A stretch of 64,000 bases of DNA from Akkermansia muciniphila (GTDB lineage: Bacteria; Verrucomicrobiota; Verrucomicrobiia; Verrucomicrobiales; Akkermansiaceae), in contig CAMDLP010000003.1 in assembly GCA_945901795.1 (NCBI GenBank), positions 1 through 64,000 of the forward strand, in the 5' to 3' direction. Positions 16,642 to 63,205 of this stretch are shown in pieces. Below the pieces are notes generated by a model. It was not told the origin of the DNA. It did not search any database and saw only the letters and a list, made by a program, of their open reading frames with translations. Within the stretch, counting starts at the first letter, position 1. Each line of letters begins with the position of its first letter. The translations under genes were made by a program, and so were the position numbers.

Positions 16642-19473
<2,832 letters not shown>

Positions 19474-38913: not shown

Positions 38914-40281
38914 ATGAATTTTTTCCGCAACCATCTCTTGCGCTTCCTGCTCCCCCTCGCGCTCGCCGCCGTAGGGGTCGCGATCTGCGCCGTGCTCGTC
39001 CCCGCGGAAACCGCCGCCGTCCGCGAGCAGCTCGTCGGTTTCCCGGACTCCGATTTCCAAGCCCACCAAGCGCGCCCACTCATCCTCACCGTCCTGTGCT
39101 TTCTACCCGCGCTCGCCGCTTTCTGCTACGCCCTCGGCAGCACCTTGGACCGCTACATCACCCGCCAGTTCGCCGGGATTTTCGCCGTCTGCCTCGGCGC
39201 GCTGCTGATGATCTGGCTGCTGATGGACATGGCCGACAAGATCGGCGATTTCCGCGAATCCAAGAACCTCATCGCGACCATCGTCAATTTCTACGCCGCC
39301 CGCTCGCCGGCGATCTTGCTCCTGTTATTGCCATACAGCCTGCTGCTCGCGCTGCTTTATGCGCTGGGAAAACTTTCCAGCAGCCGCGAAATCATCGCCA
39401 TGATCCAGGCCGGCCGCAGCGTGATCCGGATCACCTTGCCGCTCATCATCGCCGGTCTGTTTTTCAGCCTGATAGGCCTCGGACTCAACTACCAATGGGC
39501 CCCTGCCGCCGAGGGCAACATCGACAACATCCTGGCCCAAGCCAGCGGCAAACAAGCCACCGAGGCCACCCGCGTGCTCTATCGGAATGCAACCAGCCGC
39601 CGCTTGTGGATGATCGGCGCGTTTCCCCATGACTACCAGAAGGGCAAGGCGCTGCAGGACGTCGAGATCACCACCACCCGCGAGGACAAAACCCTGGAAA
39701 GCCGCCTCTGCGCCAAGCGCGCCTTCTGGGACCGCTCGACCCGCCGCTGGACTTTCGAGGAGGCCGTCACCGGAAATTATCCGCCCAAACAAGCTCCGGT
39801 TTTTGAAACCCATCCCGCGCCAGTGACCATCGACACCTGGAGCGAAACCCCGTGGCAGCTCATCAAGCCCGGCCTCAGCGCCGAAAACCTCGGCGTCCCG
39901 GACCTCAGCAGCTGGCTCAAAGCCTGGTCACAAAACGGCCAGTTCGCCGATCCAGCAGCCTACCTCACGCATTGGCACTACCGCTGGGCGCTGCCCTTCG
40001 CCTGCCTCGTCACGGTGCTGTTAGCCACCCCACTGGGCATCCACTTTTCCCGCCGCGGTCCGGGCGGCGGGATCTTCCTCGCCGTGGTCCTCTCCGCGCT
40101 GATGTTGCTTTTCTCCAGCATCTCCCTCGCCCTCGGCGAATCCGGCACCCTCCGCCCGGAACACGCCGCCTGGCTTCCCAACATCACCTTCTCCCTGCTC
40201 GGACTCTATCTCTTCCACCGCCGGATCTCCGGCCAATCGATCTACCTGATTCTCCGCCGTCTCATACCCGGCAACGACTGA
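38914..40281 (+). CDS. LptF/LptG-family permease (YjgP/YjgQ)
   Basis: 455 residues from ATG 38914 (MNFFRNHLLRFLLPLALAAV). Two N-terminal hydrophobic segments precede the conserved LptF/G start LDRYITRQFAGIFAVCLGAL. Then come two more helices with the LLPYSLLLALLYALGKLSSS and REIIAMIQAGRSVIRI coupling segment, a large periplasmic beta-jellyroll domain (residues about 190-345), and two C-terminal helices (LPFACLVTVLLATPLGIHF; IFLAVVLSALMLLFSS). It is a transmembrane subunit of the Lpt lipopolysaccharide-extraction transporter. The extra N-terminal hairpin is unusual. F versus G cannot be decided. Confidence 0.88.
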   Translation: MNFFRNHLLRFLLPLALAAVGVAICAVLVPAETAAVREQLVGFPDSDFQAHQARPLILTVLCFLPALAAFCYALGSTLDRYITRQFAGIFAVCLGALLMIWLLMDMADKIGDFRESKNLIATIVNFYAARSPAILLLLLPYSLLLALLYALGKLSSSREIIAMIQAGRSVIRITLPLIIAGLFFSLIGLGLNYQWAPAAEGNIDNILAQASGKQATEATRVLYRNATSRRLWMIGAFPHDYQKGKALQDVEITTTREDKTLESRLCAKRAFWDRSTRRWTFEEAVTGNYPPKQAPVFETHPAPVTIDTWSETPWQLIKPGLSAENLGVPDLSSWLKAWSQNGQFADPAAYLTHWHYRWALPFACLVTVLLATPLGIHFSRRGPGGGIFLAVVLSALMLLFSSISLALGESGTLRPEHAAWLPNITFSLLGLYLFHRRISGQSIYLILRRLIPGND

Positions 40282-40295
40282 ACCACTCCTCTCCC

Positions 40296-40901
40296 ATGGC
40301 TATTGCAGAACCCTGGCATGTCCGCTCCCGCGGCCGCGAATGCGCCGCCGCCCAACGTCCCTTCGTCGATGGCGAAACCATCGTCACCGCCCTTTTCCCC
40401 GACCCCGAATCCAGCGGCTACCTCCGCCGCGACTATTGCGTGGAAGGCTGGGCGACCTATCAGGAAACCGGCGGCAAGCCCTTCTCCTTCTGGCGCACCA
40501 CCTACACCGCCATCCAAAACAACGATGCCGCTATCGCCGCCGAAAGACTCAGCGCCGAGGAAATCCTCCAACGCCTGGTGGAAGAGGACGAGGACCACAC
40601 CGAAAACGCCCGCTTCATCCTCGCCGTGATGTTGGAGCGGCAAAAACTCCTGCGCGAGACCGACAGCCAGCGCACCCCCAGCGGCATCCTGCGCGTTTAC
40701 GAACACCGCAAGACCGGCGAGGTCTTCATCGTCAAGGATCCCGACATTCCCCTCAGCCAGGTGGAAGCGGTCCAGAACGAAGTTTTCATCCTCCTCGAAA
40801 ACAACGGCCGCACCCCGAGCCCGGAACAGGAACCCACCCCGGAAGCACTACCGGACGAGACTCCCAATTCCCCTGCCGACCCAGCGCCGCCCGACGCCTA
40901 A
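40296..40901 (+). CDS. conserved hypothetical protein
   Basis: 201 residues, start ATG 40296, 14 bp after the LptF/G stop, so probably co-transcribed. No named domain was recognised. The N-terminal half has a C-x-A-type pattern (RSRGRECAAAQRPFVDGETI), then YLRRDYCVEGWATYQ and FSFWRTTY. The middle is helical (ILQRLVEEDEDHTENARFIL; LAVMLERQKLLRE), and a basic-then-beta segment follows (ILRVYEHRKTGEVFIVKDP). The C-terminal 40 residues are Pro/Glu-rich and probably disordered. Probably cytoplasmic, since no signal or membrane helix is present. Confidence 0.75.
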   Translation: MAIAEPWHVRSRGRECAAAQRPFVDGETIVTALFPDPESSGYLRRDYCVEGWATYQETGGKPFSFWRTTYTAIQNNDAAIAAERLSAEEILQRLVEEDEDHTENARFILAVMLERQKLLRETDSQRTPSGILRVYEHRKTGEVFIVKDPDIPLSQVEAVQNEVFILLENNGRTPSPEQEPTPEALPDETPNSPADPAPPDA

Positions 40902-40910
40902 ACAAGTGTG

Positions 40911-40933
40911 TCCCGACTGTCTCAGCCGGGAGG
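40911..40933 (+). repeat. GGCTGTCTCAGCC repeat, copy 2
   Basis: gtgtcccgactgtctcagcc matches the left arm of the hairpin at 1448-1508 with one change. It lies 10 bp after a stop codon. The right arm is not obvious here. Confidence 0.65.
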
Positions 40934-40954
40934 AAAAGCGCATCGCACCTTGGA

Positions 40955-41120
40955 CTGCTGCAGCCTGCTGCCGCTAGCGGGGGATGGAAGCTCTGCTCCA
41001 TGCGGGGCGGAGCTCTTCACGGCGCAGAAGACGCTCCGCACCGCATCCGGCAGAGCCGGAGTTACCGTGGGCGCGAGCAGAGCATCGCGCACTCCGGAGT
41101 GCGGCACGCTCTGCTCACTG
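40955..41120 (+). repeat. dispersed two-module palindromic repeat, copy C
   Basis: Module 2 comes first (ctgctgccgctagcggggga, tggaagctctgctccatgcg, gcggagctcttcacggcgca, gaagacgctccgcacc), then module 1 (gcatccggcagagccggagt, gggcgcgagcagagcatcgc, gcactccggagtgcggcacg, ctctgctc). The order is the reverse of copies A and B, as expected if longer arrays of alternating modules exist elsewhere. Confidence 0.75.
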
Positions 41121-41357
41121 TAGAGGATAGAAAACGGGAAAAATGATCGAAGCTGAGTCATGAACGCCTCCATCACCGCAGTTCGTGAACGCGCCGTGCA
41201 AGGAGTGACGCGGCCGTTTCCATGTGCTGCGGGAGCCACTCGGTATTTTGTGAAGGGGGGCTTATCCGGGGAGGAATTCGCTGTGCAGCGAGTGGGGAGG
41301 GAACATCGAACATCGAACGTCGAAGTGGAGAGCTGGCGAGGCGACCGGTGATCGCGG

Positions 41358-44300
41358 CTACGGGGAAGACGGCCCGATCTGAATGAACAGCCGCCGCTCG
41401 GCCCCGGCTGGCAGATCTGCTGCGGGGATGAGAACGGAGGTCTCGGTGGCGGGCCAGTCGGCCGCTTTGAAAATGCCGACATCTTTCCAACTGCCAAGAT
41501 CGCTCGACGCACGGACCTGATAGTCGCGACCGGGGACGGTCTGGATGAGGGCGGAAGCGCCTGCGGGACCGGGGGTGAGATTGAGCGTCTTCATCACGCT
41601 CGTGCGGTCCGTGGGGCTGGTGCCGGCCTGGTATTCCGCGAGGTCGTTCATGCCGTCATTGTCACTATCAAGAGTGGCGGAGAGCTGGTTGAGGCCGGGA
41701 GCGAAGGCGAGCTCCCACGAGTCCTTGAGGCCGTCCCCGTCCTCATCATCCTTGCCGCCGAAGCCGAGGGTGATGGAGAACAGGTAGTCGCGCTGGAAAA
41801 GTGCTCCGGGGAGGTAAGGGGCCGGATAACGGAAGGGCACCACCGGCGCTTGCCCGAGCTCGAGGATGGCTCCCCGGTCCTCGGAGTCGTAGCGGTAGAA
41901 AATGGAATCTCCTCCATGGATGAAACTAACCGCCCCGGCCTGGGTCCCGGGGCTGCCGTCGGGTAAATTGTCCACGAAGCCCGGTGCGATCGTTTCGCCG
42001 GGAGCAACGACGATGGTGGCGGGCGCGCCTGAGAACGGCACGTCATTGTTTCCAACAGAGTAAACCGGCCGGGCGTCGCCGATGGCCAGCACCGTGAAGT
42101 CGCCGGGACCGTTGATCCGCACCACGAAGGGGGTCAGCGGATCGGTGACTTGCGAGGCGTGGAAGCGGAAACGGTCGACACTGACGGTGAGCGTCCCGGT
42201 GCCTTGGTTGGTGAAGGCTTCGGCTTGATTGATGACGAAGTTCGACTTCCCGCCGTCGGGCTGTTTATACCCCGCTTGGTCGAGGTTGTTGCCCATTTGG
42301 AGGGCGGAGACGATGTAAGTGAAGGCGAAGTGATAGTCGCGGGCATGATGGGTGATGAGATTGGTTCCCGGGACCGGAGCGCTGCCGAGCGTGAGCGAGC
42401 CGGCATTGCTGTCCAAGAGGCCGCCGCCATGCCAGACGGCGGTGCCTCCGTCGGTCCAGGCGATGACTTCCGCGCCGCTGCCGCCGCTGCCGTTAGGGTT
42501 GGCATCGAGGAAGCCGGGGGCGATCGACTCGCCCGGAAGCAGGGTGACGCTGAGCGGCGCATCGCTGAAGGCGAGGTTGTTCCCGCCGGTCGAGTAGCCG
42601 CTGCGGGTGCTGCCGATGGCGAGGACGGTGAAATTGTCCGGGGCGTTGATTTTCACGACGAAGGGCGTGAGCGGATCGCCGGCGAGCTGGGCGTGGAAGG
42701 AAAAGCGGTCGAGCCGCAGGGTGACGGGACTCGATTCGGTGTTGGTGTAGATGGCGTTCTTTTGGATCACCATGTTCGAGCGCCACGGATTGCTCACCGG
42801 TGAAGCGAGCTCGCCGCCGAGTTCGAGGCTGATGGAGAACAGGTAGTCGCGCCGGAAGCCGCTCCCCCCGGTGTACGGAAACGGGACCAGCGGCGGCTGA
42901 CCGACGACGAGGGTGGCTCCGAGATTGAGGACGTCGTAGTAATAGGTGATGAGGTCGGCGGTTTGAGAGCCCACCTCGTAGATGAAGCTGAGCGCGCCGT
43001 TCTGGCTTCCCGGGGTGCCGTTCGGCAGGTTGTCGACGAAGCCGGGAGCGATGGTTTCGCCGGGGGCGAGCACGAGGGTGGCGGGCGTGCCGGAGAAGGG
43101 CAGGTCATTGTTTCCCACCTCGTAGGCGGTCTGGGGGCTGCCGACGGCCAGCAGGGTGAAATTTCCCGGGCTGTTGATGCGGACGATGAACGGAGTCAAC
43201 GGATCGGTGACGCGGCTGGCATGGAAACGGAAGCGATCCACGGTGACGGTTAGGTTTCCACCGGTGGTGTTGGTAAAGGAATCGGTGTGGTTGACGACGA
43301 AGTTCGAGTTCGCGCCATCGGCAGTCTTGAAGCCCGGCAGATCGAGACTGTTGCCCAACTGAAGCGAGGAGAAATGGTAAGTGACGGCGAATTGATAGTC
43401 GCGGGCTTGATTGGCGATGAGATTGGTTCCCGGGACCGGGGCGCTACCGAGAGTGAGCGAGCCGGCATCGCCGTCCAAGGGGCCGCCGCCATGCCAGACG
43501 GAAGTGACGCCGTCAGTCCAGGAGACGACTTCCGCGCCGCCGCCGCCACTGCCGTTAGGATTGGCATCGAGGAAGCCGGGGGCGATCGACTCGCCCGGTT
43601 GCAGGGTGATGCTGAGCGGGGCATCGCTGAAGGCCAGGTCGTTCGCGCCGGAGGAATAGCCGCTGCGGGTAGTGCCGATGGCGACGACGGTGAAATCGTC
43701 CGGGGCATTCACCCGCACGAAGAAGGGCGTGACCGGGTCTCCGGCGAGGTTCGCATGGAAGGAAAAGCGGTCCAACAGCACGGTGACGGGACTGGATCCG
43801 GTATTGGTGTAAGTGGCGTTTTTTTGGATGACCATGTTGGATTTCCAAACCTCGCCGCCGGTGCTTCCGCCGGGTGCGCCGGTGATGCCGAGGTCTCCAC
43901 CGCCGAAGAAACTCTGTGACTTGGTGCACGAGTCGGCGTTCATCGAGAGAATCCAGTTAGCCACCCGCGCGACGGAGGCGTAATCGACCGGACCGCGGGC
44001 GATCGGCGGCATCACGATGGGCGAGTTGTGCGCGCTGATGCGCTGGAAGAGCACGGAGTTGTCCAAGCTACCGGGCTTGATCACCGCGGGTGCGGACAGG
44101 CCGAGGCCGTCGATCACGGGCCCGCAGACGAGCGACTGGTTGGTCAGCGGCGTGGTGAACCGGGCGTCGAAGAACGCGCGGGAACTTCCGTCCGGCTGAT
44201 GGCAATGCGAGCAGTTGCTGTCGAGGTAGGAGCGGACGTATTTCTCGTCGGATAGATCCGGATCACGGATGTCGCCGGAGGTGATCACGCTGGCGAGATC

Positions 44301-47195
44301 CGCGGCCTTGAGATTTCTCGGGATGAAGCCGGCGGCGCTGAAGGATTCGATCTGGTTGGCGGTGACGCCGCCCGGATAGGCTAGGCTGCGGTTCAACTGG
44401 CGGGTGCGGAATCCGAGCACGGGCCCGGTGCCCGCCTGGTGACACTGCATGCACTGGTTGCGGGACGGATAGAGATAGTCGAACGTTTGTCCGTCGAGCG
44501 TCAGCGGCTCGGTGAGGCCGTCCTCGATCAGGTCCGCCTCGGCGCCGCCGGGACGCCATTTGTAAGTCACGCCGCCCCAGCCGTCGTTGCCGTGGACGAA
44601 GAGCCGCGTCTCAAGCGGCGCGTCGTTGTCCGGGCGGGCGAAGTGCTTGACGAACACGGTGCCGACCGGGAACTGCCAGGCTTGATTCTCGCTGTAGGTG
44701 ATTTGCTCCCCCGGCGTGTTAGGAACGCCGTCGTTGGGAATCATCACCCAGCGCTTGTTTGAAAGTCCGGACGACCAGAGCGGCATGTTGACATCGTAGG
44801 GAACCATGCCCTGCGCTGGCGTGAGCGTGGCGAGGTCGGAGAAGATTCCGGTTTGGGAAAGCAGCGGCGGGTATTCCCAGGTCTCGCCGCTAACGGTGCC
44901 GGCGCGCTTGATGCGGAAGATCTTGCCGCCGCCCGCGGTGCCCGCGCCCATTTGCAGGAGGAGCAGCTCGTTGCTCGAATCGACGCCGAAGGAGCTGATG
45001 CCGTTCCAGATCGTGCCCGCGCGGCCTTGGCCGATCTGCGTCACGGAGAGCGTGGCGTTAGTCGCCGCATCGTATTCCAGCGCGTAGTAGAGCTGGGTGC
45101 TGTTATCGCCGAAAATGTATTTCCCGGCGAGTTCGGGAATCGCCGCGCCGCGGTAAACGTAGCCGCCGATGATGCAGTTTCCCTGGGTGTGATCGAATTG
45201 GTAAACCGGCCCGCGCTCGGTGCCAATCAGCGGGTCGGGTTTGACGCGGAAGCCGTCGGCGTTGCCTTCCTTGTAGTTCCACTGGAAATTGAGGCCCGGC
45301 TGGTCCATCACGTCCACTTCCTCCCAGTTCGCCGCGCCCACATCGCCGATCCAGAAACGGTTGCCGACCGGGTCGTAAGTCATCCGGTGCGGCTCGCGCA
45401 GGCCGATGGCATAGTATTCCTCGAGCGCCCCCGCCACACCGGTCCAGGGATTGTCATTCGGGATATAATAGCCCTGGGTGTAGGTGTGATCGATGGTGTT
45501 GACGTTGATTTCACCAGCCTGCAGCGGCGGTTCAGCGGGCTGGTTGACAATTGGATGGCTGACCGCGCCTCCCAGCATGTCCACGTCCATCCGCCAGACG
45601 CCGGAGCGCGCGCGGTCGTCGATTTTCTGGGTGTGCGGGGTGGAATCCGCGCTTTCCGTGCCCTCGTCGCCGAGGCTCAGATAGAGGAAACCGTCGCCGC
45701 CGAAGACCAGTCCGCCGCCGTCGTGACCTTTGACGGTATCGAACTGCTGGATCATGACCCACTCGCTGGCGGGGTCGAAAGCCGAGGTCGCGGGATTCCA
45801 AGTGAAGCGCGAGAGGCGGGCGTAATAGGGGTTGTTCGAATCAACGACGGCGTCCGGATTGTCCGTCGGATGGTGGAGATAATAAACGTAAAGATAGTCC
45901 TTCGCGGCGCTTTGACCGAACTGCGGATGAAAGGCGCAGCCGAGGATGCCGCCGTGTTTGTGGGTCGGAGCTCCCTGATCCCAGTTCATATACCAGACGC
46001 GGTCGCGGATATCGAGCGCGGTGGCGAGTTGCGCCGGAGTGGCGGCGTCATTGTCCGGGAGGCGGAAGATCCGGCCGTCCATTTCGGCAACCATCATTTC
46101 ACTGCCGGATCCGGGCCAGGGCAGGGCGGCGATCGGCGACTCCCAACTCAAGTTAGAGAAGGCGGCGACGGTATCCACCTGGGTGGGAACGATGGAGAGC
46201 GTGGGGAGTTTGCCGTTGGAAAATGGCGCAACGGGCTTAGCGCCACCGAAGCCGGCGACGCCCTCGGTGTAGGGGCGGAGCGAGACCGCGCTGGTCGGGA
46301 AATCCGACGGCACGGCGGTGCCCGGATCTTTTTGGGCGCACCATTTCAGTGCGCGGACCAGCGTTTCCTGAAACGCGGCGCAGCGCATGCCTTCGGGTTC
46401 CGCCTGGTCTGACCAGATGTGGCCGTAGGTCGAGGCGTAAACGCGGCCGGTGCCGTAAGCCACGGTCCACTCGACCGGATGCTGGAGCGCGGGCTGGCCC
46501 GCCGCCGGATCGGGGTCGGTGGCGTAGGACAGGATTTTCACGTTTGCCGCGAGATTGGGATCGATGCCGCGGGGGAAACGCACGACTTCCAAGTCGGCGG
46601 CGAACCACGAGTTCGGCAAGCCCGCGTGGATCGGGTGGACGGCGGGCAACCCGTGGCGTTTGACCAGCACGTTGGCGCGGGCACCGTGCCCGGTGGCCAG
46701 GCCGGAGCCGGGAGGATGGACGAGCAGCGAATCGTCCGCATTCACCGTGAAGGCGGTGCCGGTGTTAGAGTCATGCCAGGTGAGACCGACGATTTCCTGA
46801 TACTCCTGCCAGGCGGTGAACGCTTGGTTCGCCTCGTGGAAGGCGAGGAAGCCGCCGCCGGTTTGAACGTACGCCGCGAAAGCGGTTTGGACGCCGAGCG
46901 GCCAAGACGCGCCTCCGGTGGCGTTGCTGTATCCGGAAAGGACGACGTCGTAGTTGGAAAAATTGGGATTCCACGCCGCCCACTCCGGGCTGGCGACATC
47001 CTGCGGCACGAGGGTGACGTCCATTTGGAACGAGCCGTCGCGGGAGAGAACGGACCGGAGATTCTCGATCCGGCGCTGCCAGTCGTGATTGCTGGCTCCC
47101 TCGATGACGAGGACCTTGGTCACGGCCGCGACTCCAACTTCTGATAGGGAAAGGACGGCGAAAACCGACCAAACGAGGTATTTGGGGAGATTCAT
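41358..47195 (-). CDS. giant secreted ThuA / PQQ-dehydrogenase / dihaem cytochrome protein with long repeats
   Basis: 1945 residues from ATG 47195. Signal peptide (YLVWSVFAVLSLSEVGVA); ThuA-like domain about 25-285 (VLVIEGASNHDWQRRI, GGGFLAFHEANQAF); glucose/sorbosone-dehydrogenase-type PQQ beta-propeller about 325-780 (GGILGCAFHPQF, GLREPHRMTYDP). A dihaem region follows with CMQCH near residue 915 and CSHCH near 995, as in SO_2930-type proteins. About 700 residues are then built as A-B-A'-B' repeats of about 177 residues, and a TSP3-like stretch (EDGDGLKDSWE) and a beta domain close it. Probably a cell-surface sugar or lactone oxidation enzyme passing electrons to its own haems; substrate unknown. 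Monocistronic, convergent with the 40296 gene. Confidence 0.88.
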   Translation of the reverse strand: MNLPKYLVWSVFAVLSLSEVGVAAVTKVLVIEGASNHDWQRRIENLRSVLSRDGSFQMDVTLVPQDVASPEWAAWNPNFSNYDVVLSGYSNATGGASWPLGVQTAFAAYVQTGGGFLAFHEANQAFTAWQEYQEIVGLTWHDSNTGTAFTVNADDSLLVHPPGSGLATGHGARANVLVKRHGLPAVHPIHAGLPNSWFAADLEVVRFPRGIDPNLAANVKILSYATDPDPAAGQPALQHPVEWTVAYGTGRVYASTYGHIWSDQAEPEGMRCAAFQETLVRALKWCAQKDPGTAVPSDFPTSAVSLRPYTEGVAGFGGAKPVAPFSNGKLPTLSIVPTQVDTVAAFSNLSWESPIAALPWPGSGSEMMVAEMDGRIFRLPDNDAATPAQLATALDIRDRVWYMNWDQGAPTHKHGGILGCAFHPQFGQSAAKDYLYVYYLHHPTDNPDAVVDSNNPYYARLSRFTWNPATSAFDPASEWVMIQQFDTVKGHDGGGLVFGGDGFLYLSLGDEGTESADSTPHTQKIDDRARSGVWRMDVDMLGGAVSHPIVNQPAEPPLQAGEINVNTIDHTYTQGYYIPNDNPWTGVAGALEEYYAIGLREPHRMTYDPVGNRFWIGDVGAANWEEVDVMDQPGLNFQWNYKEGNADGFRVKPDPLIGTERGPVYQFDHTQGNCIIGGYVYRGAAIPELAGKYIFGDNSTQLYYALEYDAATNATLSVTQIGQGRAGTIWNGISSFGVDSSNELLLLQMGAGTAGGGKIFRIKRAGTVSGETWEYPPLLSQTGIFSDLATLTPAQGMVPYDVNMPLWSSGLSNKRWVMIPNDGVPNTPGEQITYSENQAWQFPVGTVFVKHFARPDNDAPLETRLFVHGNDGWGGVTYKWRPGGAEADLIEDGLTEPLTLDGQTFDYLYPSRNQCMQCHQAGTGPVLGFRTRQLNRSLAYPGGVTANQIESFSAAGFIPRNLKAADLASVITSGDIRDPDLSDEKYVRSYLDSNCSHCHQPDGSSRAFFDARFTTPLTNQSLVCGPVIDGLGLSAPAVIKPGSLDNSVLFQRISAHNSPIVMPPIARGPVDYASVARVANWILSMNADSCTKSQSFFGGGDLGITGAPGGSTGGEVWKSNMVIQKNATYTNTGSSPVTVLLDRFSFHANLAGDPVTPFFVRVNAPDDFTVVAIGTTRSGYSSGANDLAFSDAPLSITLQPGESIAPGFLDANPNGSGGGGAEVVSWTDGVTSVWHGGGPLDGDAGSLTLGSAPVPGTNLIANQARDYQFAVTYHFSSLQLGNSLDLPGFKTADGANSNFVVNHTDSFTNTTGGNLTVTVDRFRFHASRVTDPLTPFIVRINSPGNFTLLAVGSPQTAYEVGNNDLPFSGTPATLVLAPGETIAPGFVDNLPNGTPGSQNGALSFIYEVGSQTADLITYYYDVLNLGATLVVGQPPLVPFPYTGGSGFRRDYLFSISLELGGELASPVSNPWRSNMVIQKNAIYTNTESSPVTLRLDRFSFHAQLAGDPLTPFVVKINAPDNFTVLAIGSTRSGYSTGGNNLAFSDAPLSVTLLPGESIAPGFLDANPNGSGGSGAEVIAWTDGGTAVWHGGGLLDSNAGSLTLGSAPVPGTNLITHHARDYHFAFTYIVSALQMGNNLDQAGYKQPDGGKSNFVINQAEAFTNQGTGTLTVSVDRFRFHASQVTDPLTPFVVRINGPGDFTVLAIGDARPVYSVGNNDVPFSGAPATIVVAPGETIAPGFVDNLPDGSPGTQAGAVSFIHGGDSIFYRYDSEDRGAILELGQAPVVPFRYPAPYLPGALFQRDYLFSITLGFGGKDDEDGDGLKDSWELAFAPGLNQLSATLDSDNDGMNDLAEYQAGTSPTDRTSVMKTLNLTPGPAGASALIQTVPGRDYQVRASSDLGSWKDVGIFKAADWPATETSVLIPAADLPAGAERRLFIQIGPSSP
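41724..43847 (-). repeat. 1062-bp internal tandem duplication in the giant ThuA/PQQ gene
   Basis: Unit 1 (42786-43847) and unit 2 (41724-42785) align with an exact offset of 1062 bp (354 codons), for example the Trp codons at 43847 and 42785 that begin WKSNMVIQKN and WRSNMVIQKN. The DNA stretch cgaggaagccgggggcgatc recurs at the same offset near 43570 and 42508. Each unit is itself two related 177-residue domains (DRFSFHA...PGFLDANPNGSGG; DRFRFHAS...PGFVDNLPNG). Confidence 0.85.
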
Positions 47196-47341
47196 AAAAA
47201 AGGGGGAATGTAGGAACAGCATCTGCCGTGCCGAGACGATGAGGAGCGGAGGCAGCTCAACAACGTTTCACGTGCCATGCTACATCATCCCGCTTGTGGT
47301 GCAAGATGTTCGTATCACGTGATCACGTAGGATCCCGGGTT

Positions 47342-48775
47342 TCAGGAACTCGTCAACGCGTGCCGCCAGAAAAGCCGGTTTTCGCCCGCCTGAAATCGAT
47401 AGACCCGCTCGCCGTCAACTCCCGGCGCGCTGCTGTCCGACTCGAGGGTGGCTCCACTCCCGGAAACCCCGGCCACCTCCCAATCCGAAAGATCGCGGCT
47501 GCATTCCAACCGCAACACGAAGCCCTGCGCCAAAGCCCTGCCGGACACGGGCACCCGCAGGCTCCGGACGCCGTTTTCCAAAACCATCACGGGCCCCTCA
47601 TCCCAGATCATGGGATTGAGACGGAGCATGAACTCCATACCATTGGAAAACGCGTCGCCGTCGTCGTTTGCCGCCAGCGAGGCCGTCGCCCCGTACTCGT
47701 CGGCCCACTTGCCGAAGAAGTCCCCGCCTTCGGAAATCCGCAAGTCATCGAAAACGATGCTTGAACCCAGATCCGGCGTGGTCGAGCGGACCTCCAGCGT
47801 CAGTTTGCCGTCCGGCCCAGCGAGCACCGGAACCTCGACCAAGCTGTAGCCATCCGACCATTTCTGACTGATCGTCCTCACGAGGGAAGTGACGACCTGG
47901 CGGTTGGCCAGCACCTCACCGGTCATATTGCCGTCATACCAACCAATGTGCCGGGCATGCAGAAATGAAACCGTGTAAGCCCCGCCCGGAATGAGCCCCG
48001 TGATCGTCTGGGCGATCCCGCCCGGACCCGACCCGCCCACATCCAGCACGTTGGTTTCCTCGGGAGCATTGGCTTGATTGAATTGAATGACATCGACGTT
48101 CTCCCTCGTCACCCGCCATCCCGGAAGGGCATCGCCGGAAAGAAGCTCGTTGAACTCCCCGGCGATGTTCGGATTGCCCGTCGGATCGCCGATCGGGCTT
48201 TCAAAGCCGCCATTGACCAAGGCCCGCCCGCCGCGGGCATCCGCCACGGGGGTCAGATCCGCCCACGATTCCTCCGGCGGCAGCGGCAATCCGCCCACTT
48301 CGATCCTGACGTTATCGACCAACAGCCCGGCACTCCCGCTCTCCAGCGATTCAATCCGCAAGACCGCCGTGGTGGCTCCGGGCACGAACTCGAAACCATT
48401 GGCACTTAAATATTTATCCGCCTGCCCGTTGTGGATCTCGCCGATCTGCACGCCATCGATCTTCACCCGTGCGTCGGCAAGGTCTCCCGTCCCGGCCTGA
48501 GCCAGATAGGCGAGCCGCACCGTGTGAACCTGTCCGACTACCAATTCGCTGAAGGTCTGCTCGATAAATCCGTTCGCCAAATTCAGGCACTTGGTTCCCT
48601 CGAAGGCGAATCCGGTTTCCACTGTGACGTCGGCCGACGTCCAGCCCGTGAGATCCTCCTCAAAACCGGGATTCAATCCGACCGGCGCTCCGAAAAGCCC
48701 CCCCGGAAAAAGGAAGGCTGCAAACAACGGGGAGTAAAAGGAAACCGACAGCTTTCTGATAGATGGGGGAGTCAC
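47342..48775 (-). CDS. secreted two-domain protein, DUF642/CBM-like, paralogue 2
   Basis: 477 residues, start GTG 48773-48775. Signal peptide (FYSPLFAAFLFPGGLFGA) then two beta-sandwich domains of DUF642/carbohydrate-binding appearance: NPGFEEDLTGWTSADVTVET and ALVNGGFESPIGDPTGNP...VDVIQFNQ...GGSGPGGIAQTITGL. The C-terminal part has an EF-hand-like DDGDAFSNGMEFMLRLNP and a final domain (LRLECSRDLSDWEVAGVSGS; YRFQAGENRLFWRHAL) that also ends other verrucomicrobial secreted proteins. Highly similar over its full length to the product of 48865-50277, so the pair is a tandem duplication. Function unknown; polysaccharide or cell-wall binding is a guess. Confidence 0.75.
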   Translation of the reverse strand: MTPPSIRKLSVSFYSPLFAAFLFPGGLFGAPVGLNPGFEEDLTGWTSADVTVETGFAFEGTKCLNLANGFIEQTFSELVVGQVHTVRLAYLAQAGTGDLADARVKIDGVQIGEIHNGQADKYLSANGFEFVPGATTAVLRIESLESGSAGLLVDNVRIEVGGLPLPPEESWADLTPVADARGGRALVNGGFESPIGDPTGNPNIAGEFNELLSGDALPGWRVTRENVDVIQFNQANAPEETNVLDVGGSGPGGIAQTITGLIPGGAYTVSFLHARHIGWYDGNMTGEVLANRQVVTSLVRTISQKWSDGYSLVEVPVLAGPDGKLTLEVRSTTPDLGSSIVFDDLRISEGGDFFGKWADEYGATASLAANDDGDAFSNGMEFMLRLNPMIWDEGPVMVLENGVRSLRVPVSGRALAQGFVLRLECSRDLSDWEVAGVSGSGATLESDSSAPGVDGERVYRFQAGENRLFWRHALTSS

Positions 48776-48864
48776 GACTGCACATTAACCGCTTCCAACG
48801 ACGCGCTTCAATACCTTGATCGCGTAGGTTGACAGGTTTTGAAAAATGGAGACATCGCCAGTTA

Positions 48865-50277
48865 TCAAGGGCTCGTCAGCGCGTGTCGCCAGAAGATTTT
48901 GCTCTCCCCGGCTTGGAATCGATAGACCCGCTCGCCGTCGATTCCCGGAACGCTGCTGTCCGACTCGAGGGTGATTCCACTCCCGGAAACCCCGGCCACC
49001 TCCCAATCGGATAGATCGCGGCTACACTCCAACCGCAGCCCGAAACCTTGCGCCAAAGCCTCGCCGGACACGGGCACCCGCAGGCGCCGGACCCCGTTTT
49101 CCAAAACCATCCGCGGACCGTCACTCCTCACGGTGGGATCGAGACGGAGGGCGAACTCCATTCCATTGGAAAACGAGTCGCCGTCGTCGTTTGCCGCCAG
49201 CGAGGCCGTCACGCCGAATTTCGCGGCCCACTTGCCGAAGAAGTCCCCGCCTTTCGCAATCCGGAAGTCGTCGTAAACGATGTTCCCACCTTGATCCAAG
49301 TTGGTCGAGCGCACCTCGACCGTCAGCCTGCCGTCCTGCCCCGCGATCACCGGGATACTCAGCAGGCTGTAGCCTTGGTTCCATGTCTGGTTGATCGTCC
49401 TCACCAGCGAGGCGACGACCTGCCGGTTAGCGAGGAAATCCCCGGTCATGTTGGCGGTGCCCCAGTAAACGTGCCGGGCATGCCAGAAGGAAACCGTGTA
49501 GGCCGCGCCCGCAGCGAGACCCGTGATCGTCTGGGCGATCCCGCCGGGACCGTGACCACCGGTATCCAAAGCATTCGCTCCTTGCGGCGGTTTCGCGGAG
49601 TTGGACTTGATGACATCGACGTTCTCGCGGGTGACCAGCCAGCCCGGCAGGGAAAATCCGCACAGATGCTCGTTGCCAGCGGGGCCGCTGTTGTTCGGAT
49701 CGTTGGTCGGACTTCCGATCGCGCTCTCGAAGCCGCCATTCACCAAGGCCCGCCCGCCGCGCGCATCCGTCATGACCTGAAGATCCGCCCAAGCCTTTTC
49801 CGGCGGCAGCGGCAATCCGCCGGTCTCGATCCGGACGGCGTCGATCCGCAGCCCGTTCGTCCCGGTTTCCAGCGACTCGACCCGCAAGACCGCGGTGGCG
49901 GCCGCCGCGATGAACTCGAATCCATTGCAACTCAGGTATTCCGTCGTTTGGCCGTTGTGAATCTCGCCGATGGCCACGCCGTCGATTTTCACCCGCGCAT
50001 GGCCGAGCAAATAGTTCGCCCCCGTCCAAATGTAGGCGAGCCGGACCTTGTGGCGCTGCCCGGCCACCAGCCCGCTGACAGTCTGCGAGACAAATCCGTT
50101 TTTCAAATTCTGACGCTTGGTGCCCTCGAAAGCACCTCCGGTTTCCACCGCGACATTGGAATTCGTCCAGCCCGTGAGGCCGCTCTCAAAGCCGGTATTC
50201 GTTCCGACCGGAGCCGCTAACAGCGAAGCCGGGGACAAAAAGGCAGCAAGCCATCGTGCGTGAATGTAACCGGACAT
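48865..50277 (-). CDS. secreted two-domain protein, DUF642/CBM-like, paralogue 1
   Basis: 470 residues, start ATG 50275-50277 (MSGYIHARWLAAFLSP). Same architecture as its downstream neighbour: signal peptide, NTGFESGLTGWTNSNVAVET, ALVNGGFESAIGSPTNDPNN, GGHGPGGIAQTITGL, DDGDSFSNGMEFALRLDP, and an almost identical last 60 residues (LRLECSRDLSDWEVAGVSGS). Many stretches are identical at DNA level, which points to a recent duplication. The gap between the two is 89 bp, so they may form one transcript. No anchor or sorting motif was recognised at the C-terminus. Confidence 0.75.
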   Translation of the reverse strand: MSGYIHARWLAAFLSPASLLAAPVGTNTGFESGLTGWTNSNVAVETGGAFEGTKRQNLKNGFVSQTVSGLVAGQRHKVRLAYIWTGANYLLGHARVKIDGVAIGEIHNGQTTEYLSCNGFEFIAAAATAVLRVESLETGTNGLRIDAVRIETGGLPLPPEKAWADLQVMTDARGGRALVNGGFESAIGSPTNDPNNSGPAGNEHLCGFSLPGWLVTRENVDVIKSNSAKPPQGANALDTGGHGPGGIAQTITGLAAGAAYTVSFWHARHVYWGTANMTGDFLANRQVVASLVRTINQTWNQGYSLLSIPVIAGQDGRLTVEVRSTNLDQGGNIVYDDFRIAKGGDFFGKWAAKFGVTASLAANDDGDSFSNGMEFALRLDPTVRSDGPRMVLENGVRRLRVPVSGEALAQGFGLRLECSRDLSDWEVAGVSGSGITLESDSSVPGIDGERVYRFQAGESKIFWRHALTSP

Positions 50278-50355: not shown

Positions 50356-50910
50356 TTAACGCAATCCGGCCGCGATATTCTCCGCCAGGCGGGCGAGCAG
50401 ACGGGATTGGGCGGCGACCATCGCGGCGTAACCGTCGGATGCCAGCGGCTCGCGGTCCACGAAGGTGCGGGAGGCTTTCAGCTTGCGGTCCGGCAGGGAA
50501 TACGCGCGCCAACCCGCCTCGATGACCGCGTAGCCTTCCGCCTCGCTGTGGAGCTGGCGGACGTCGAGAGTGACCTGATAGTCGATCTCCTCGTCCCGTT
50601 GCCACGGGTAGGTGCGGACGTTGCCGGTTTTCATTTCGCGGCCGAGGTTGGCGGCCGTGACGCGGGCGATCGAGGCGGACAGATCGCCGGCCCAGCGGTT
50701 GTCCTCCGAGACGGCGAGTTGGTTAGGACCTTGCTGGATGACGAGATTCGGGCGGTCGATGTATTCCGCGAGTGCGATCGGTCCGACCCCGATGCCGGTC
50801 CCGCCACCCGAGGGCGCGGGGCCTTTGGCGGTGAGGACGTAGAAATTCTTGTTAGGCCCGGCACAACCGGCGAGCAGCAGCACGGCAAGGAGAATGAAAA
50901 AACGATTCAT
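50356..50910 (-). CDS. pqiC: PqiC-like ABC-transport auxiliary lipoprotein
   Basis: 184 residues from ATG 50908-50910. Lipoprotein signal FFILLAVLLLAGCAGP with lipobox LAGC. The DUF330/ABC_trans_aux domain follows (FYVLTAKGPAP; IGVGPIALAEYIDRPNLVIQ; NRWAGDLSASIARVTAANLG; QVTLDVRQLHSEAEGYAVIE). PqiC is an outer-membrane-anchored partner of the PqiB tube in lipid transport between membranes. It follows pqiB by 13 bp in a pqiA-pqiA-pqiB-pqiC operon. An in-frame upstream extension overlaps pqiB and lacks a signal sequence. Confidence 0.88.
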   Translation of the reverse strand: MNRFFILLAVLLLAGCAGPNKNFYVLTAKGPAPSGGGTGIGVGPIALAEYIDRPNLVIQQGPNQLAVSEDNRWAGDLSASIARVTAANLGREMKTGNVRTYPWQRDEEIDYQVTLDVRQLHSEAEGYAVIEAGWRAYSLPDRKLKASRTFVDREPLASDGYAAMVAAQSRLLARLAENIAAGLR

Positions 50911-50923
50911 GGTGAGATAAGGA

Positions 50924-52561
50924 TTAGCGCCCGGCTTTCGGGGCTTTGGGGATGGAATTGCCCGAGCCATCCTTGCCGAAGATCAGCGAGTTAGGCTTTT
51001 CCTCAAGGGTGTTGGTCATGGACTTCATGGACCTCAAGGCCGCGCGGAGTTCATCGAGAGTGCGGAGCAAGTCGCCCTGGATCGCGCCGTCCGGGCCGAC
51101 GCTGGTGACGGATTTTTCAAGCGCGGCCAGCGTGTTTTTCAAGTCTGCGGGAAGGTTGGCGAACGCCTCGGAATCCAGCGTCTTGCGGGCGGCGGCGATG
51201 GTGACGGTCGCCTCCTCGGCCAGCGTGTCGATTTTCTTCATGGTTCCCTCAAGTGGCAGGGCCTGAACCTTGTCGAGGATGGCGGTGAGCTTGGCTTCCA
51301 ACTGGGCGAGACCCGAGGAAACCGTGGGGATCGAAGGGTAATCACCGACTTTGGTCAGCTCGGCGGGCTGCGGGTCATTGTAGTAGTCGAGGTCCACATA
51401 CAGCGCACCGGTGAGCAAGCTGCCGGTTTTCAAAGCGGCCCGCAGGCCACGGGCGACCGCTTCCTTGAGGAACTCCCCGTCGGGCTTGCTGACTTTCTCA
51501 GCCGCCTCGCGACGCAACAGGGAGGGGTCGATTTCCACTAACACCGGAATCCGCGAATCGTCGGCGGCCTTCAGATAGTCGAACGAAATATCCGCGACCC
51601 GCCCGATGGGGATGCCGCGGAATTCCACGGGAGCCGCCTTGACCAGCCCGCGGACCGATTGGTCGAAGAGCAGCACGAATTCCATCGTGGGATTGAAGGT
51701 GGATTGATTCGCCGCGTCTTCGTCTGAGAAAAGCGTGAATGTCGCGCCATCCGCCGCGGGAGGCCCGGGCGCGATTCCCTCCGGCACGCCGAAGGCCGCG
51801 CCGCCGGAGACCATCGCTTGGAACGACGGGGTCCGCACTTTGAAACCATCCGCCCCGGCGCTGATGTCGATGCCGCTGGTGTTCCAGAAACGGGTGTTTT
51901 CTTTCACCAGGGAGCTGTATTCCGCGCTGACGAAGGCATCGTAGGTGACTCGCTGGCCTTCGAGATCGAGCTTGCGGCTTTCAATCCGCCCGACTTCAAA
52001 GCCACGATGATAAATCGGCGAGCCCGCCGTGAGCGAGCCCGCTTGCTCGGCGGTTAGGACGATCCGATGCCCGGGAATGTCGCGATTGGTGGGCAGCGGC
52101 GTCTCCAAGCCTTCGAAGTGATGGACCACTTCGCCATCCGCCGGGCCGGGGTCGAGCTCGATGTAGGCGCCGGTGATCAGGGTCCCGAGGCCGGAAATGT
52201 CGGTGGTGGAAACCCGCGGGCGGACGACCCAGAAATTCGCCCCGTCTCGCAACAGGCGCCCGGAATCCGGATTGAGCTCAAGTCGCACGACGACCGATTT
52301 CAAATCCTCCGCCAAGGTGACTTCCTTGACCAATCCAACCCGGACCGAACGACAGCGAACCTCCGTTTTCTCCGCCCCAATTCCGTCCGCCGTGTCGAAG
52401 CGGACATACGCGACCGGGCCCTGCGCGCTGACGCTGCGGTAAATCATCCAGCCGCCGATGATCAGTGCCAGAATGGGAACCACCCACACGATGTTCCAGC
52501 GTTGCGCCGCCCTTAACTCCGGCGTCGCGGCGGGAGGTGATGTCGTTTCCGTTTCGCTCAA
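50924..52561 (-). CDS. pqiB: PqiB-like MCE-domain intermembrane transport protein
   Basis: 545 residues, matching E. coli PqiB in size. One N-terminal transmembrane helix (IVWVVPILALIIGGWMIY), then three MCE/MlaD domains (ISAQGPVAYVRFDTADGIGA without the first residue; YHRGFEVGRIESRKLDLEGQ; VEFRGIPIGRVADISFDYLK), and a long C-terminal helical region (LEAKLTAILDKVQALPLEG, IDTLAEEATVTIAAARKTL) that forms the needle in PqiB. It bridges inner and outer membranes for lipid trafficking. Its start overlaps the preceding pqiA half by 4 nt. Confidence 0.92.
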   Translation of the reverse strand: MSETETTSPPAATPELRAAQRWNIVWVVPILALIIGGWMIYRSVSAQGPVAYVRFDTADGIGAEKTEVRCRSVRVGLVKEVTLAEDLKSVVVRLELNPDSGRLLRDGANFWVVRPRVSTTDISGLGTLITGAYIELDPGPADGEVVHHFEGLETPLPTNRDIPGHRIVLTAEQAGSLTAGSPIYHRGFEVGRIESRKLDLEGQRVTYDAFVSAEYSSLVKENTRFWNTSGIDISAGADGFKVRTPSFQAMVSGGAAFGVPEGIAPGPPAADGATFTLFSDEDAANQSTFNPTMEFVLLFDQSVRGLVKAAPVEFRGIPIGRVADISFDYLKAADDSRIPVLVEIDPSLLRREAAEKVSKPDGEFLKEAVARGLRAALKTGSLLTGALYVDLDYYNDPQPAELTKVGDYPSIPTVSSGLAQLEAKLTAILDKVQALPLEGTMKKIDTLAEEATVTIAAARKTLDSEAFANLPADLKNTLAALEKSVTSVGPDGAIQGDLLRTLDELRAALRSMKSMTNTLEEKPNSLIFGKDGSGNSIPKAPKAGR

Positions 52562-53208
52562 GTGTCTGTTTTTTTAAGAGTTGATGAATCGAGTTGGAGC
52601 ATTTCAAGCCGGTCCCACAAGAGTCGGGGATCGAAGCTCATTGCTGCGAACATGGTAAGCACGACCACCCCGCCGAATGCAAGCGCGCCGGGCCCGGGCG
52701 TGACGGTCATGTAATTGCCGAGCTGCACCAGCGCCACTAAAATCCCCACCACGAAGATATCCACCATTGACCACCGCCCCATGAGCTCGGTGAACCAATA
52801 CATTTTCCCGAGCATCGCGGGCGACGGGTGCAGCTTCCCCGAAGCGGCCAAGCAAAGCCAGCTGATGGCGATGATTTTGAGCAGCGGAATCAAGATGGAC
52901 GCCGTCAAAATAACCAGCGCGATCGGGTAAGCCCCGCCTTTCCAAAAGTAAATGATCCCCCCGACGATCGTGTTGCTGGTCACCACGCCCAGCTCCACCA
53001 TCGTCATCATTGGCAGGAAATTCGCCGGGATATACAGAGCGGTAGCGGCCAGCATGAACGCCATCGTCCGCCTGACACTATCCGGTTTCCGCAGGTGCAG
53101 ACGCGACCCGCAGCGGGGGCAGCGCCCGAGGCTGACCGGAGAAACCTTCCCGCACGTGTGGCACCCCGCCAATCCCCGCGCCGCCGCTCGTGGCAATGAT
53201 CCGCTCAT
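52558..53208 (-). CDS. PqiA-like membrane protein, second half
   Basis: 216 residues from ATG 53206-53208. A zinc-ribbon-like CHTCGKVS...CPRCG is followed by four transmembrane helices with the PqiA pattern YIPANFLPMMTMVELG and TELMGRWSMVDIFVVGILVA, ending AMSFDPRLLWDRLE. E. coli PqiA is a single protein with two such domains; here each domain is its own gene, overlapping by 4 nt, so the two products probably dimerise. An inner-membrane partner of PqiB. Confidence 0.87.
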   Translation of the reverse strand: MSGSLPRAAARGLAGCHTCGKVSPVSLGRCPRCGSRLHLRKPDSVRRTMAFMLAATALYIPANFLPMMTMVELGVVTSNTIVGGIIYFWKGGAYPIALVILTASILIPLLKIIAISWLCLAASGKLHPSPAMLGKMYWFTELMGRWSMVDIFVVGILVALVQLGNYMTVTPGPGALAFGGVVVLTMFAAMSFDPRLLWDRLEMLQLDSSTLKKTDT

Positions 53209-53870
53209 CGTTTCGCCACCTCCAAGCGATCCCAAAGTTCATCCCGGTCGATGCCAGAAACCGCCGCCGCCATGCACAGCATCACCGCGCCGAACGCCCA
53301 GAAGCCCGGACCGAAATGGACGTCCGCCAGCTTGTTCAGCTTCAGCAGACTGACTAACACTCCCAACAGGAACACCTCGATCATGTTCCATGGCTCGGTC
53401 TTGTTCAGCCACTTGGCGACATGGATCGCCCCCGGCGCGATCCTTCCGAACAGGAGCGGACCGCAAACATAAAGCAGCCCGCCCGCCAGTGACAGCGGAG
53501 TGACGATCGTGAAAAGCGCCAGCGCCACACCCAACAAAGGACTGCCCTCCGCGATCAACGCTCTCGTCCCGGACACCAGGTTCAAAGTCGTCCGGATGCC
53601 CGCCGCATCCATCGTCAGAAACGGAAACCAGTTCACCACGAACATCAAAACCAGCGCCGCGATGGAAAACGAAGTCACCCGCGCCAGCGAGGCCGGGCGA
53701 TTTTGATAGAGAACCGCCCCGCAGCAGCGGCAACGGGCAGCCACGCCCTCTACCAGAGGCGTGGCTTCGTGCAGGGTGTCACAAAAATGACACGCCGAAT
53801 AATGCGGCCCGCCCGGCGGCCGCGGCCAGGGATGCAAGGCCCGCCTGGTTCTGGAAAACGATCTTCTCAT
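53205..53870 (-). CDS. PqiA-like membrane protein, first half
   Basis: 221 residues from ATG 53868-53870, one base after the preceding gene's stop. A Cys motif CHFCDTLHE...CRCCG is followed by helices with MFVVNWFPFLTMDAAGIRTT and EPWNMIEVFLLGVLVSLLKL, and the end GIDRDELWDRLE, which matches the end of the other half. Together with the next gene it makes up a split PqiA. The close spacing to the FAH-family gene suggests one transcript of five genes. Confidence 0.87.
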   Translation of the reverse strand: MRRSFSRTRRALHPWPRPPGGPHYSACHFCDTLHEATPLVEGVAARCRCCGAVLYQNRPASLARVTSFSIAALVLMFVVNWFPFLTMDAAGIRTTLNLVSGTRALIAEGSPLLGVALALFTIVTPLSLAGGLLYVCGPLLFGRIAPGAIHVAKWLNKTEPWNMIEVFLLGVLVSLLKLNKLADVHFGPGFWAFGAVMLCMAAAVSGIDRDELWDRLEVAKR

Positions 53871-53871
53871 C

Positions 53872-59758: not shown

Positions 59759-63205
<3,447 letters not shown>

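What the first reader, a model, noticed from the sequence alone, without database searches (positions are those of the whole stretch)
41358..47195. ThuA, PQQ dehydrogenase and dihaem cytochrome in one 1945-residue secreted protein
An oxidoreductase, its likely electron acceptor and a ThuA domain are joined with about 700 residues of surface-type repeats. It may oxidise sugars on the cell surface and pass electrons to an outer-membrane partner. The combination with the long repeats looks uncommon.
Basis: partly seen in the sequence, partly recalled or inferred. Interest (0 to 1): 0.5.

Follow-up and report, generated by a model that had tools for sequence, protein, structure and literature searches.

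The report
Secreted sugar-oxidase-like fusion with dihaem cytochrome
One very long, probably secreted bacterial protein joins a sugar-handling domain, a sugar-dehydrogenase-like propeller, a two-haem cytochrome and four lectin-like modules; the same build recurs in related Verrucomicrobiota, so it is real, but its cofactor site is altered and its reaction is unproven.

Summary
Confirmed, with corrections. The 1945-residue ORF (41358-47195, minus) has a signal-like N-terminus, ThuA, a GSDH-fold propeller, a TIGR03806-like dihaem cytochrome, four units A-B-A'-B', then a TSP3-type/CTD tail. The full build occurs at 18 loci in 17 genomes of one Verrucomicrobiota family, with 1, 2 or 4 units; GSDH-cytochrome fusions without ThuA are widespread across phyla. 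The units are not generic surface repeats: 41 of 47 hits lie in proteins that also hold this cytochrome, and the B unit's model resembles a lectin-like jelly roll. 'PQQ dehydrogenase' is the weak part: the catalytic His (112/113) and Arg (113/113) are kept, but the Arg-x-Arg motif of known PQQ sugar dehydrogenases is found in only 3/113 (one Arg may remain in orthologues), the best PDB match by sequence is human HHIP, and PqqC was found in 0 of 20 genomes. Two tandem upstream genes encode a double jelly-roll that is fused into such proteins elsewhere, so they are probable partners. A Maribacter homologue has a T9SS tail, which supports a surface or secreted place. Best reading: a surface quinohaemoprotein-like sugar dehydrogenase, a new variant of a known kind.

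The parts
41358..47195 (-). whole CDS, 1945 aa (alternative ATG at 47222 gives 1954 aa)
   Evidence: orthologues
47124..47195 (-). signal-peptide-like N-terminus, about residues 1-24 (MNLPKYLVWSVFAVLSLSEVGVAA)
   Evidence: read by eye from the translation; no signal-peptide program was available
46341..47117 (-). ThuA domain, residues 27-285
   Evidence: Pfam PF06283 E=2.6e-18; solved relative 4e5v E=3.3e-34
44898..46184 (-). GSDH-fold propeller, about residues 338-766; His491, Arg600; Arg-x-Arg motif absent
43941..44870 (-). TIGR03806-like dihaem c-type cytochrome domain
44439..44453 (-). haem motif 1, CMQCH, residues 915-919; candidate distal ligand His851 (36/37)
44199..44213 (-). haem motif 2, CSHCH, residues 995-999; candidate distal ligand Met1062 (37/37, MPP)
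43380..43850 (-). unit A1
42816..43379 (-). unit B1
42318..42785 (-). unit A2
41757..42317 (-). unit B2
41361..41750 (-). TSP3-type Asp-rich repeats plus C-terminal domain
   Evidence: PF18884 E=2.8e-4, 21.1 bits, under its cut-off of 25; alignment A6
47342..48775 (-). upstream choice-of-anchor-C-like gene with signal-like N-terminus, probable functional partner
   Evidence: TIGR04362 E=2.2e-20, 73.5 bits, under its cut-off of 120; module fused in homologues
48865..50277 (-). tandem paralogue of the previous gene (69% identical)

Best explanation
A secreted, probably cell-surface, quinohaemoprotein-like dehydrogenase. Lectin-like jelly-roll units (and the two separate upstream jelly-roll proteins) hold the protein on a glycan or matrix. 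The propeller oxidises a bound carbohydrate at its conserved His491/Arg600 site with a scavenged quinone cofactor, most simply PQQ bound without the usual Arg-x-Arg motif. Electrons pass to the two c haems next in the chain and from there to an unidentified acceptor. ThuA handles the sugar or its oxidised product. SHOWN by computation: domains, order, predicted fold, haem motifs, conservation, recurrence, PqqC not found. INFERRED: cofactor, substrate, direction of electron flow, surface location, roles of ThuA and the units.
For: ThuA, GSDH and TIGR03806 matches. The 782-aa GSDH-cytochrome model (mean pLDDT 82.6) matches PQQ sugar dehydrogenases 7cgz/3a9g/2ism/2g8s (Z 36.6-37.1, rmsd 2.5-2.8, 319-337 aligned) and HHIP 7pgm (Z 37.5, rmsd 2.9, 343 aligned), a tie. 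His491 in 112 of 113 and Arg600 in 113 of 113 aligned homologues; in sGDH, His144 and Arg228 are the proposed catalytic pair (PMC6881810, passages). Both CXXCH motifs and Met1062 invariant in 37 of 37. The unit mostly sits in proteins with this cytochrome: 41 of 47 hits in 21 of 254 genomes, and it follows it in Maribacter, Oligoflexales, Thiogranum and Cellvibrionaceae records too. The B-unit model resembles the lectin-like domain of Cwp84 (4d59: Z 10.7, rmsd 3.3, 150 aligned). The Maribacter homologue ends in a T9SS type A sorting domain, 33.3 bits over a cut-off of 23.
Against: Arg-x-Arg motif found in the aligned segment of only 3 of 113 and not in the window. A sequence profile prefers HHIP (3.4e-38), described as lacking several PQQ-binding residues, over sGDH (3.8e-20). 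PqqC in 0 of 20 genomes; the model does ring in 8 of 288 genomes of the phylum, 6 over cut-off. No redox partner among ten neighbouring ORFs scanned (39096-41357 not scanned). TIGR03806 score is under its cut-off. Unit model has mean pLDDT of only 73. No T9SS tail in the window protein. The match of His491 to sGDH His144 rests on the HHIP alignment and the motif: in the big alignment the control L016's own His did not fall in that column.
Confidence: 0.45

Rival explanations
1. The propeller is a non-catalytic binding platform, as in human HHIP, and the dihaem domain is the only redox part (electron relay or terminal reductase docked on a glycan or matrix).
For: HHIP is the best profile match in the PDB and ties for the best structural match; Arg-x-Arg motif lost; HHIP was solved with heparin (7pgm title); PqqC not found.
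Against: The His/Arg pair is kept in 112/113 and 113/113 across phyla, which a mere scaffold would not need; PMC4133262 (passage) says HHIP keeps the His too, so this argument is not decisive.
Confidence: 0.27
2. It is an oxidoreductase of this fold acting on something other than a sugar, or with a cofactor other than PQQ.
For: Altered cofactor pocket: Glu/Gln601 where sGDH has Asn229, and Val619, in 16/16 orthologue rows; Arg725 in 15/16 orthologue rows but 17/113 overall; PqqC not found.
Against: ThuA and lectin/CBM-like modules point to carbohydrates; fungal AA12 binds PQQ with other residues (PMC6881789, passages).
Confidence: 0.2
3. Electrons run the other way: the haems receive electrons from the cell and the propeller/ThuA part is reductive or sensory.
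For: Nothing computed fixes direction; TIGR03806's namesake SO_2930 is listed as outer-membrane/extracellular in Shewanella (PMC4837345, one passage, a table).
Against: The characterised cytochrome fusion of this propeller fold that I read about is a dehydrogenase (PMC4133262, PMC6881789, passages).
Confidence: 0.06
4. Fusion is an assembly or gene-calling artefact.
For: Draft genome (120 contigs); two of the 18 loci are frame-split (L055, L068).
Against: 18 loci in 17 genomes share the order, at 51-91% identity over the aligned part of the core.
Confidence: 0.02

Closest known systems
   Same: ThuA - GSDH - dihaem cytochrome - unit(s) - TSP3/CTD; 51-91% identity over the aligned part of the ThuA-GSDH-cytochrome core
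   Different: 1, 2 or 4 units; JB025 has an extra N-terminal jelly-roll that in the window is part of separate upstream genes
GSDH-TIGR03806 fusions without ThuA (Maribacter, Oligoflexales, Thiogranum and others)
   Same: propeller directly followed by the dihaem domain, in these three by the same unit; 51/50/42% identity
   Different: no ThuA; other C-terminal modules (Maribacter: beta/gamma crystallins plus T9SS tail; Thiogranum: F5/8 C and choice-of-anchor C)
PQQ soluble glucose / aldose sugar dehydrogenases (A. calcoaceticus sGDH, E. coli Asd)
   Same: propeller fold, catalytic His and Arg
   Different: no Arg-x-Arg motif; fused to haem, ThuA and jelly-roll modules
Hedgehog-interacting protein HHIP
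   Same: closest propeller by sequence and tied by structure; no Arg-x-Arg in the aligned segment
   Different: animal, no haem domain, ligand-binding rather than enzymatic (recalled)
Coprinopsis cinerea pyranose dehydrogenase (AA8 cytochrome b - AA12 PQQ - CBM1)
   Same: works-like analogue: secreted propeller dehydrogenase fused to a cytochrome and a carbohydrate-binding module (PMC4133262, passages)
   Different: cytochrome b of another fold; different domain order; more distant propeller (6jt5 Z 26.1)
Planctomycete-specific cytochrome (PSCyt) proteins of Verrucomicrobia
   Same: haem proteins, some joined to carbohydrate-binding modules (PMC5615132, passages)
   Different: different cytochrome families (PSCyt1 E=0.049, under cut-off); PSD domains, no GSDH mentioned in the passages

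Membership tests
Pfam GSDH (PF07995) fold family | profile score over cut-off | tested here: met
   66.6 bits against 25; Z 32-37 to solved PQQ sugar dehydrogenases
PQQ-dependent sugar dehydrogenase (sGDH/Asd) | catalytic His (sGDH His144) and Arg (Arg228) | tested here: met
   His491 112/113, Arg600 113/113; Arg mapped through 2g8s, His through HHIP; the control L016's His was not in the same column
PQQ-dependent sugar dehydrogenase (sGDH/Asd) | Arg-x-Arg before the last blade (sGDH 406/408; 406 recalled, 408 in PMC6881789) | tested here: not met
   present in 7cdy, 2g8s, 3a9g, 2ism, 1c9u and own-genome L016; in 3 of 113 here, not in the window; the aligner set the window's lone Arg725 against the second Arg of L016
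PQQ-dependent sugar dehydrogenase (sGDH/Asd) | Lys377 of sGDH | tested here: inconclusive
   Ser699 here, but L016 has Ala in that column and 7cdy has Ala in the aligned GALAQ stretch, so it does not define the family
PQQ-dependent sugar dehydrogenase (sGDH/Asd) | PQQ binding and sugar oxidation | not testable with these tools
   needs protein
NCBIfam TIGR03806 (SO2930-type dihaem c) | score over curated cut-off | tested here: not met
   220.7-226 against 313.3 bits although full length; 0 of 260 family genomes exceed it
NCBIfam TIGR03806 (SO2930-type dihaem c) | two CXXCH motifs | tested here: met
   37 of 37 aligned
ThuA (PF06283) | profile score over cut-off | tested here: met
   67.5 against 33.4
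Quinohaemoprotein dehydrogenase | quinone-enzyme domain and haem in one chain | tested here: inconclusive
   fold and haem motifs present; quinone binding unproven
T9SS substrate | C-terminal sorting domain | tested here: not met
   no Por_Secre_tail in the window protein at E<=1; present in the Maribacter homologue
PSCyt cytochromes | PSCyt1 over cut-off | tested here: not met
   14.7 against 22 bits

The most novel reading that the evidence does not exclude
The propeller belongs to a widespread bacterial, haem-coupled HHIP-type clade that keeps the catalytic His/Arg but has replaced the PQQ carboxylate clamp, so it uses PQQ in a new way or another cofactor, on glycans held by a dedicated jelly-roll unit. 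It would then be the redox-active counterpart of the animal HHIP/HHIPL receptors.
Probability: 0.2. Interest if true: 0.7.

Novelty: new variant of a known kind. Interest (0 to 1): 0.42.

Why it matters
It defines a recurrent, cross-phylum redox architecture (HHIP-like propeller plus TIGR03806-like dihaem domain) with an uncharacterised jelly-roll unit that mostly accompanies it. If catalytic, it would couple glycan oxidation outside the cell to an electron chain in bacteria in which no PqqC was found, and it would place the animal receptor HHIP beside a bacterial redox clade. A bench assay of one soluble fragment would settle the cofactor.

Tried and rejected
Conserved neighbourhood (15 orthologue loci of 11-18 kb): only sister G103 (L055) shares the window's neighbours; two further matches (L053 at 39%, L068 at 42%) are to window genes more than 13 kb from the CDS. 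So gene context gives no redox partner. Ten neighbouring ORFs were scanned: PqiABC-like genes (ABC_trans_aux, MlaD, PqiA, PqiA), a helicase, PilM, dehydroquinase, FAA hydrolase and the two upstream jelly-roll genes; ORFs in 39096-41357 were not scanned. The unit: no PDB relative by sequence (best E=1.4) and no Foldseek match at E<=0.001; VIA-align gives a lectin-like jelly roll for the B unit. The dihaem domain: no convincing PDB relative by sequence (best E=0.16); it was not folded alone, so I make no claim on its fold. PqqE matched in 20 of 20 genomes and in 14 of 14 controls, never over cut-off (best 78.8 against 381.35), so those are read as other radical-SAM proteins. 'Generic surface repeat' rejected. 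CTD as a genome-wide sorting tail: 9 hits in the own genome, 6 of them weak (E 2.4e-6 to 2.4e-4) and mostly in the TSP3 part, so not pursued. Literature: searches showed no title or abstract start describing this architecture in the held open-access library (one search was too broad: 20,196 papers, 5 listed); apart from six papers of which I read passages, I saw listings only, and subscription papers were not searched. Rows left out: A1 holds 37 of 41 GSDH-cytochrome stretches; A3 and A4 hold 23 of those 37; A2 holds 13 rows, two of them the window's halves, without L053, L068, L074, L084; A5/A6 come from 12 of 16 ORFs and the HMMs from 14 of 16. Only 40 regions were fetched from the many hits. 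Rows under 330 aa or without both domains were dropped. The 113 rows contain the same protein twice for at least L053/L090 and L062/L128, so the 16 orthologue rows are 15 distinct proteins.

Full report
Observation. The ORF is real and open, and the three domain calls are right: ThuA 2.6e-18 and GSDH 3.1e-18, TIGR03806 dihaem cytochrome 2.5e-65 over its full length but below its curated cut-off. ThuA has a solved relative (4e5v, 3.3e-34). CXXCH motifs lie at residues 915 and 995. Residues 1116-1812 are four units, A1-B1-A2-B2, with A1/A2 79.6%, B1/B2 63.5% and A/B 42.5-50.7% identity. The tail is a TSP3-type Asp-rich stretch plus a C-terminal domain.

Recurrence. TIGR03806 rings at E<=1e-20 in 75 of 260 genomes of the same family, over its cut-off in none. 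In the 40 regions fetched (annotated) and, the complete build (ThuA - GSDH - cytochrome - unit(s) - CTD) is present at 18 loci in 17 genomes, including the window; two of the loci, L055 and L068, are frame-split. Identity to the window over the aligned part of the ThuA-GSDH-cytochrome core is 51-91% (split ORFs align only in part). Contig lengths tie G142, of the window's genus, to MAG 'Verrucomicrobiota bacterium JB025' (82360 bp) and G187, of its family, to Roseibacillus ishigakijimensis (185205 bp), so the window is from Verrucomicrobiota. Unit number is 1, 2 or 4. In a tree of 53 units, A-type and B-type units form largely separate groups (L224 and L222 do not fit). The window's A1 and A2 cluster with the sister's only A (support 0.985), A2 being the nearer (0.858), and B2 pairs with the sister's B (0.821), so the A-B pair was duplicated around or shortly before the split from the sister.

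Wider family. By record titles, GSDH directly followed by the dihaem domain occurs in Verrucomicrobiota, Bacteroidota, Gammaproteobacteria, Planctomycetota, Myxococcota, Oligoflexia and others. Of those 79 loci, 2 carry a fused ThuA and 1 has a separate ThuA ORF nearby (many loci are cut by contig ends). Maribacter (51% identity) has propeller, cytochrome, one unit, crystallin-like modules and a T9SS type A tail over cut-off, which is the best evidence for a surface or secreted place.

The propeller. The AlphaFold model of propeller plus cytochrome has mean pLDDT 82.6. HHIP (7pgm Z 37.5, rmsd 2.9, 343 aligned) and PQQ sugar dehydrogenases (7cgz, 3a9g, 2ism, 2g8s; Z 36.6-37.1) tie; sGDH entries follow at Z 32-34 and fungal AA12 at 26-27. 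A sequence profile prefers HHIP (3.4e-38) over sGDH (3.8e-20). The residues that matter: His491 in 112 of 113 and Arg600 in 113 of 113 homologues, read as sGDH His144/Arg228 (roles from PMC6881810, passages). The Arg is mapped through 2g8s, the His through HHIP. In the big alignment the control L016's own His was not in that column, a weakness. The Arg-x-Arg that precedes the last blade in 7cdy, 2g8s, 3a9g, 2ism and 1c9u, and in the genome's own Asd-type enzyme L016, is found in 3 of 113 and not in the window. Against a full loss: the aligner set Arg725 of the window against the second Arg of L016, and Arg725 is kept in 15 of 16 orthologue rows (17 of 113 overall), so one Arg of the clamp may remain in the orthologues. 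Position 601 (sGDH Asn229) is Glu or Gln in 16 of 16 orthologue rows. PMC4133262 (passages) reports that several PQQ-binding residues are also missing in HHIP and in the fungal enzyme CcSDH, yet CcSDH is PQQ-dependent. So the loss does not exclude PQQ, and it does not support it either.

Cofactor supply. PqqC: 0 of 20 genomes searched, 17 of which hold the full protein; one of these, G091, is only 72% complete, and no control genome rang. The same model rings in 8 of 288 genomes of the phylum, 6 over cut-off, so it works there. PQQ, if used, would have to be taken up, as PMC6881789 (passage) says for E. coli. The own genome also holds L016, an Asd-type dehydrogenase fused to a cytochrome c, with the Arg-x-Arg.

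Haems. Both CXXCH motifs and Met1062 (MPP) are invariant in 37 of 37; His851 in 36 of 37 is the candidate second ligand of haem 1. Ligand roles are inference.

The units. With profile A5, 47 hits in 21 of 254 genomes; 41 of the 47 lie in ORFs that also hold the cytochrome. The exceptions are G096:C110 (2 hits), G086, G243, G223 and G237 (1 each); the G223 ORF is cut by its contig end. The unit model (mean pLDDT 73) gives no Foldseek match at E<=0.001. By VIA-align the B unit matches the lectin-like domain of Cwp84 (4d59, Z 10.7, rmsd 3.3, 150 aligned). A glycan- or matrix-binding role is therefore likely but not shown.

Upstream genes. Two tandem genes (47342-48775, 48865-50277, 69% identical) carry a double jelly-roll of choice-of-anchor-C type, under that model's cut-off; the jelly-roll wording is inference from the weak CBM_4_9 and TIGR04362 matches. 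In the own genome only these two copies were found, plus one weak hit (E=1.9e-4). The same module is fused to the N-terminus of the JB025 orthologue (57% over 142 aa) and to the C-terminus of GSDH-cytochrome proteins in Thiogranum (37.5% over 320) and JB025 (39% over 318); the comparison set was loci of this family, so it is biased. As a check, 9 of 254 family genomes have a match to the gene. Eight of these cover the jelly-roll part, and all 8 also have the full ThuA protein. In six of those eight the gene lies on another contig or over 1 Mb away, and shared ancestry is not corrected for. The sister G103 lacks the two genes at this place. I read this as a likely functional link.

Mechanism. 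Shown: anatomy, conservation, recurrence. Inferred: surface glycan binding by units and upstream proteins, oxidation in the propeller, haem relay, ThuA acting on sugar. The electron acceptor is unknown.

Literature. Searches of the open-access library listed no paper describing this architecture. PMC5615132 (passages) describes other cytochrome-CBM fusions in Verrucomicrobia (PSCyt). PMC4837345 (one passage) lists SO_2930 as outer-membrane/extracellular. The ThuA function is recalled and touched on in one passage of PMC12022489.

Verdict. A real, recurrent architecture and a new variant of a known kind. The sugar/PQQ reading is plausible, not established.

Noticed in passing
window 47342-50277 (-): Tandem pair of choice-of-anchor-C-like genes, absent from the same place in sister genome G103 (L055) and fused to homologues of the main protein elsewhere.
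   Followed up: yes
window 50356-54008 (-): ABC_trans_aux, MlaD, PqiA, PqiA in a row: a PqiABC-type lipid-transport operon.
   Followed up: no
L016 (G000:C50): Own-genome fusion of an N-terminal cytochrome c with an Asd-type PQQ dehydrogenase that keeps Arg-x-Arg, in a genome in which no PqqC was found.
   Followed up: partly
L225:6377-9219 (-) and L222:5937-14627 (-): Relatives with GSDH-like and unit matches but no cytochrome match; the G086 case may be an assembly deletion, the G096 case is a 2897-aa ORF.
   Followed up: partly
window 16642-19473, 23223-27797, 28638-31244, 59759-63205: Other very long minus-strand ORFs; 23223-27797 has two hits of the CTD profile in its TSP3 part.
   Followed up: no
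L135:716-10872 (+): Haloferula sp. BvORR071 has two tandem GSDH-cytochrome ORFs whose cytochrome match is split by about 190 residues.
   Followed up: no
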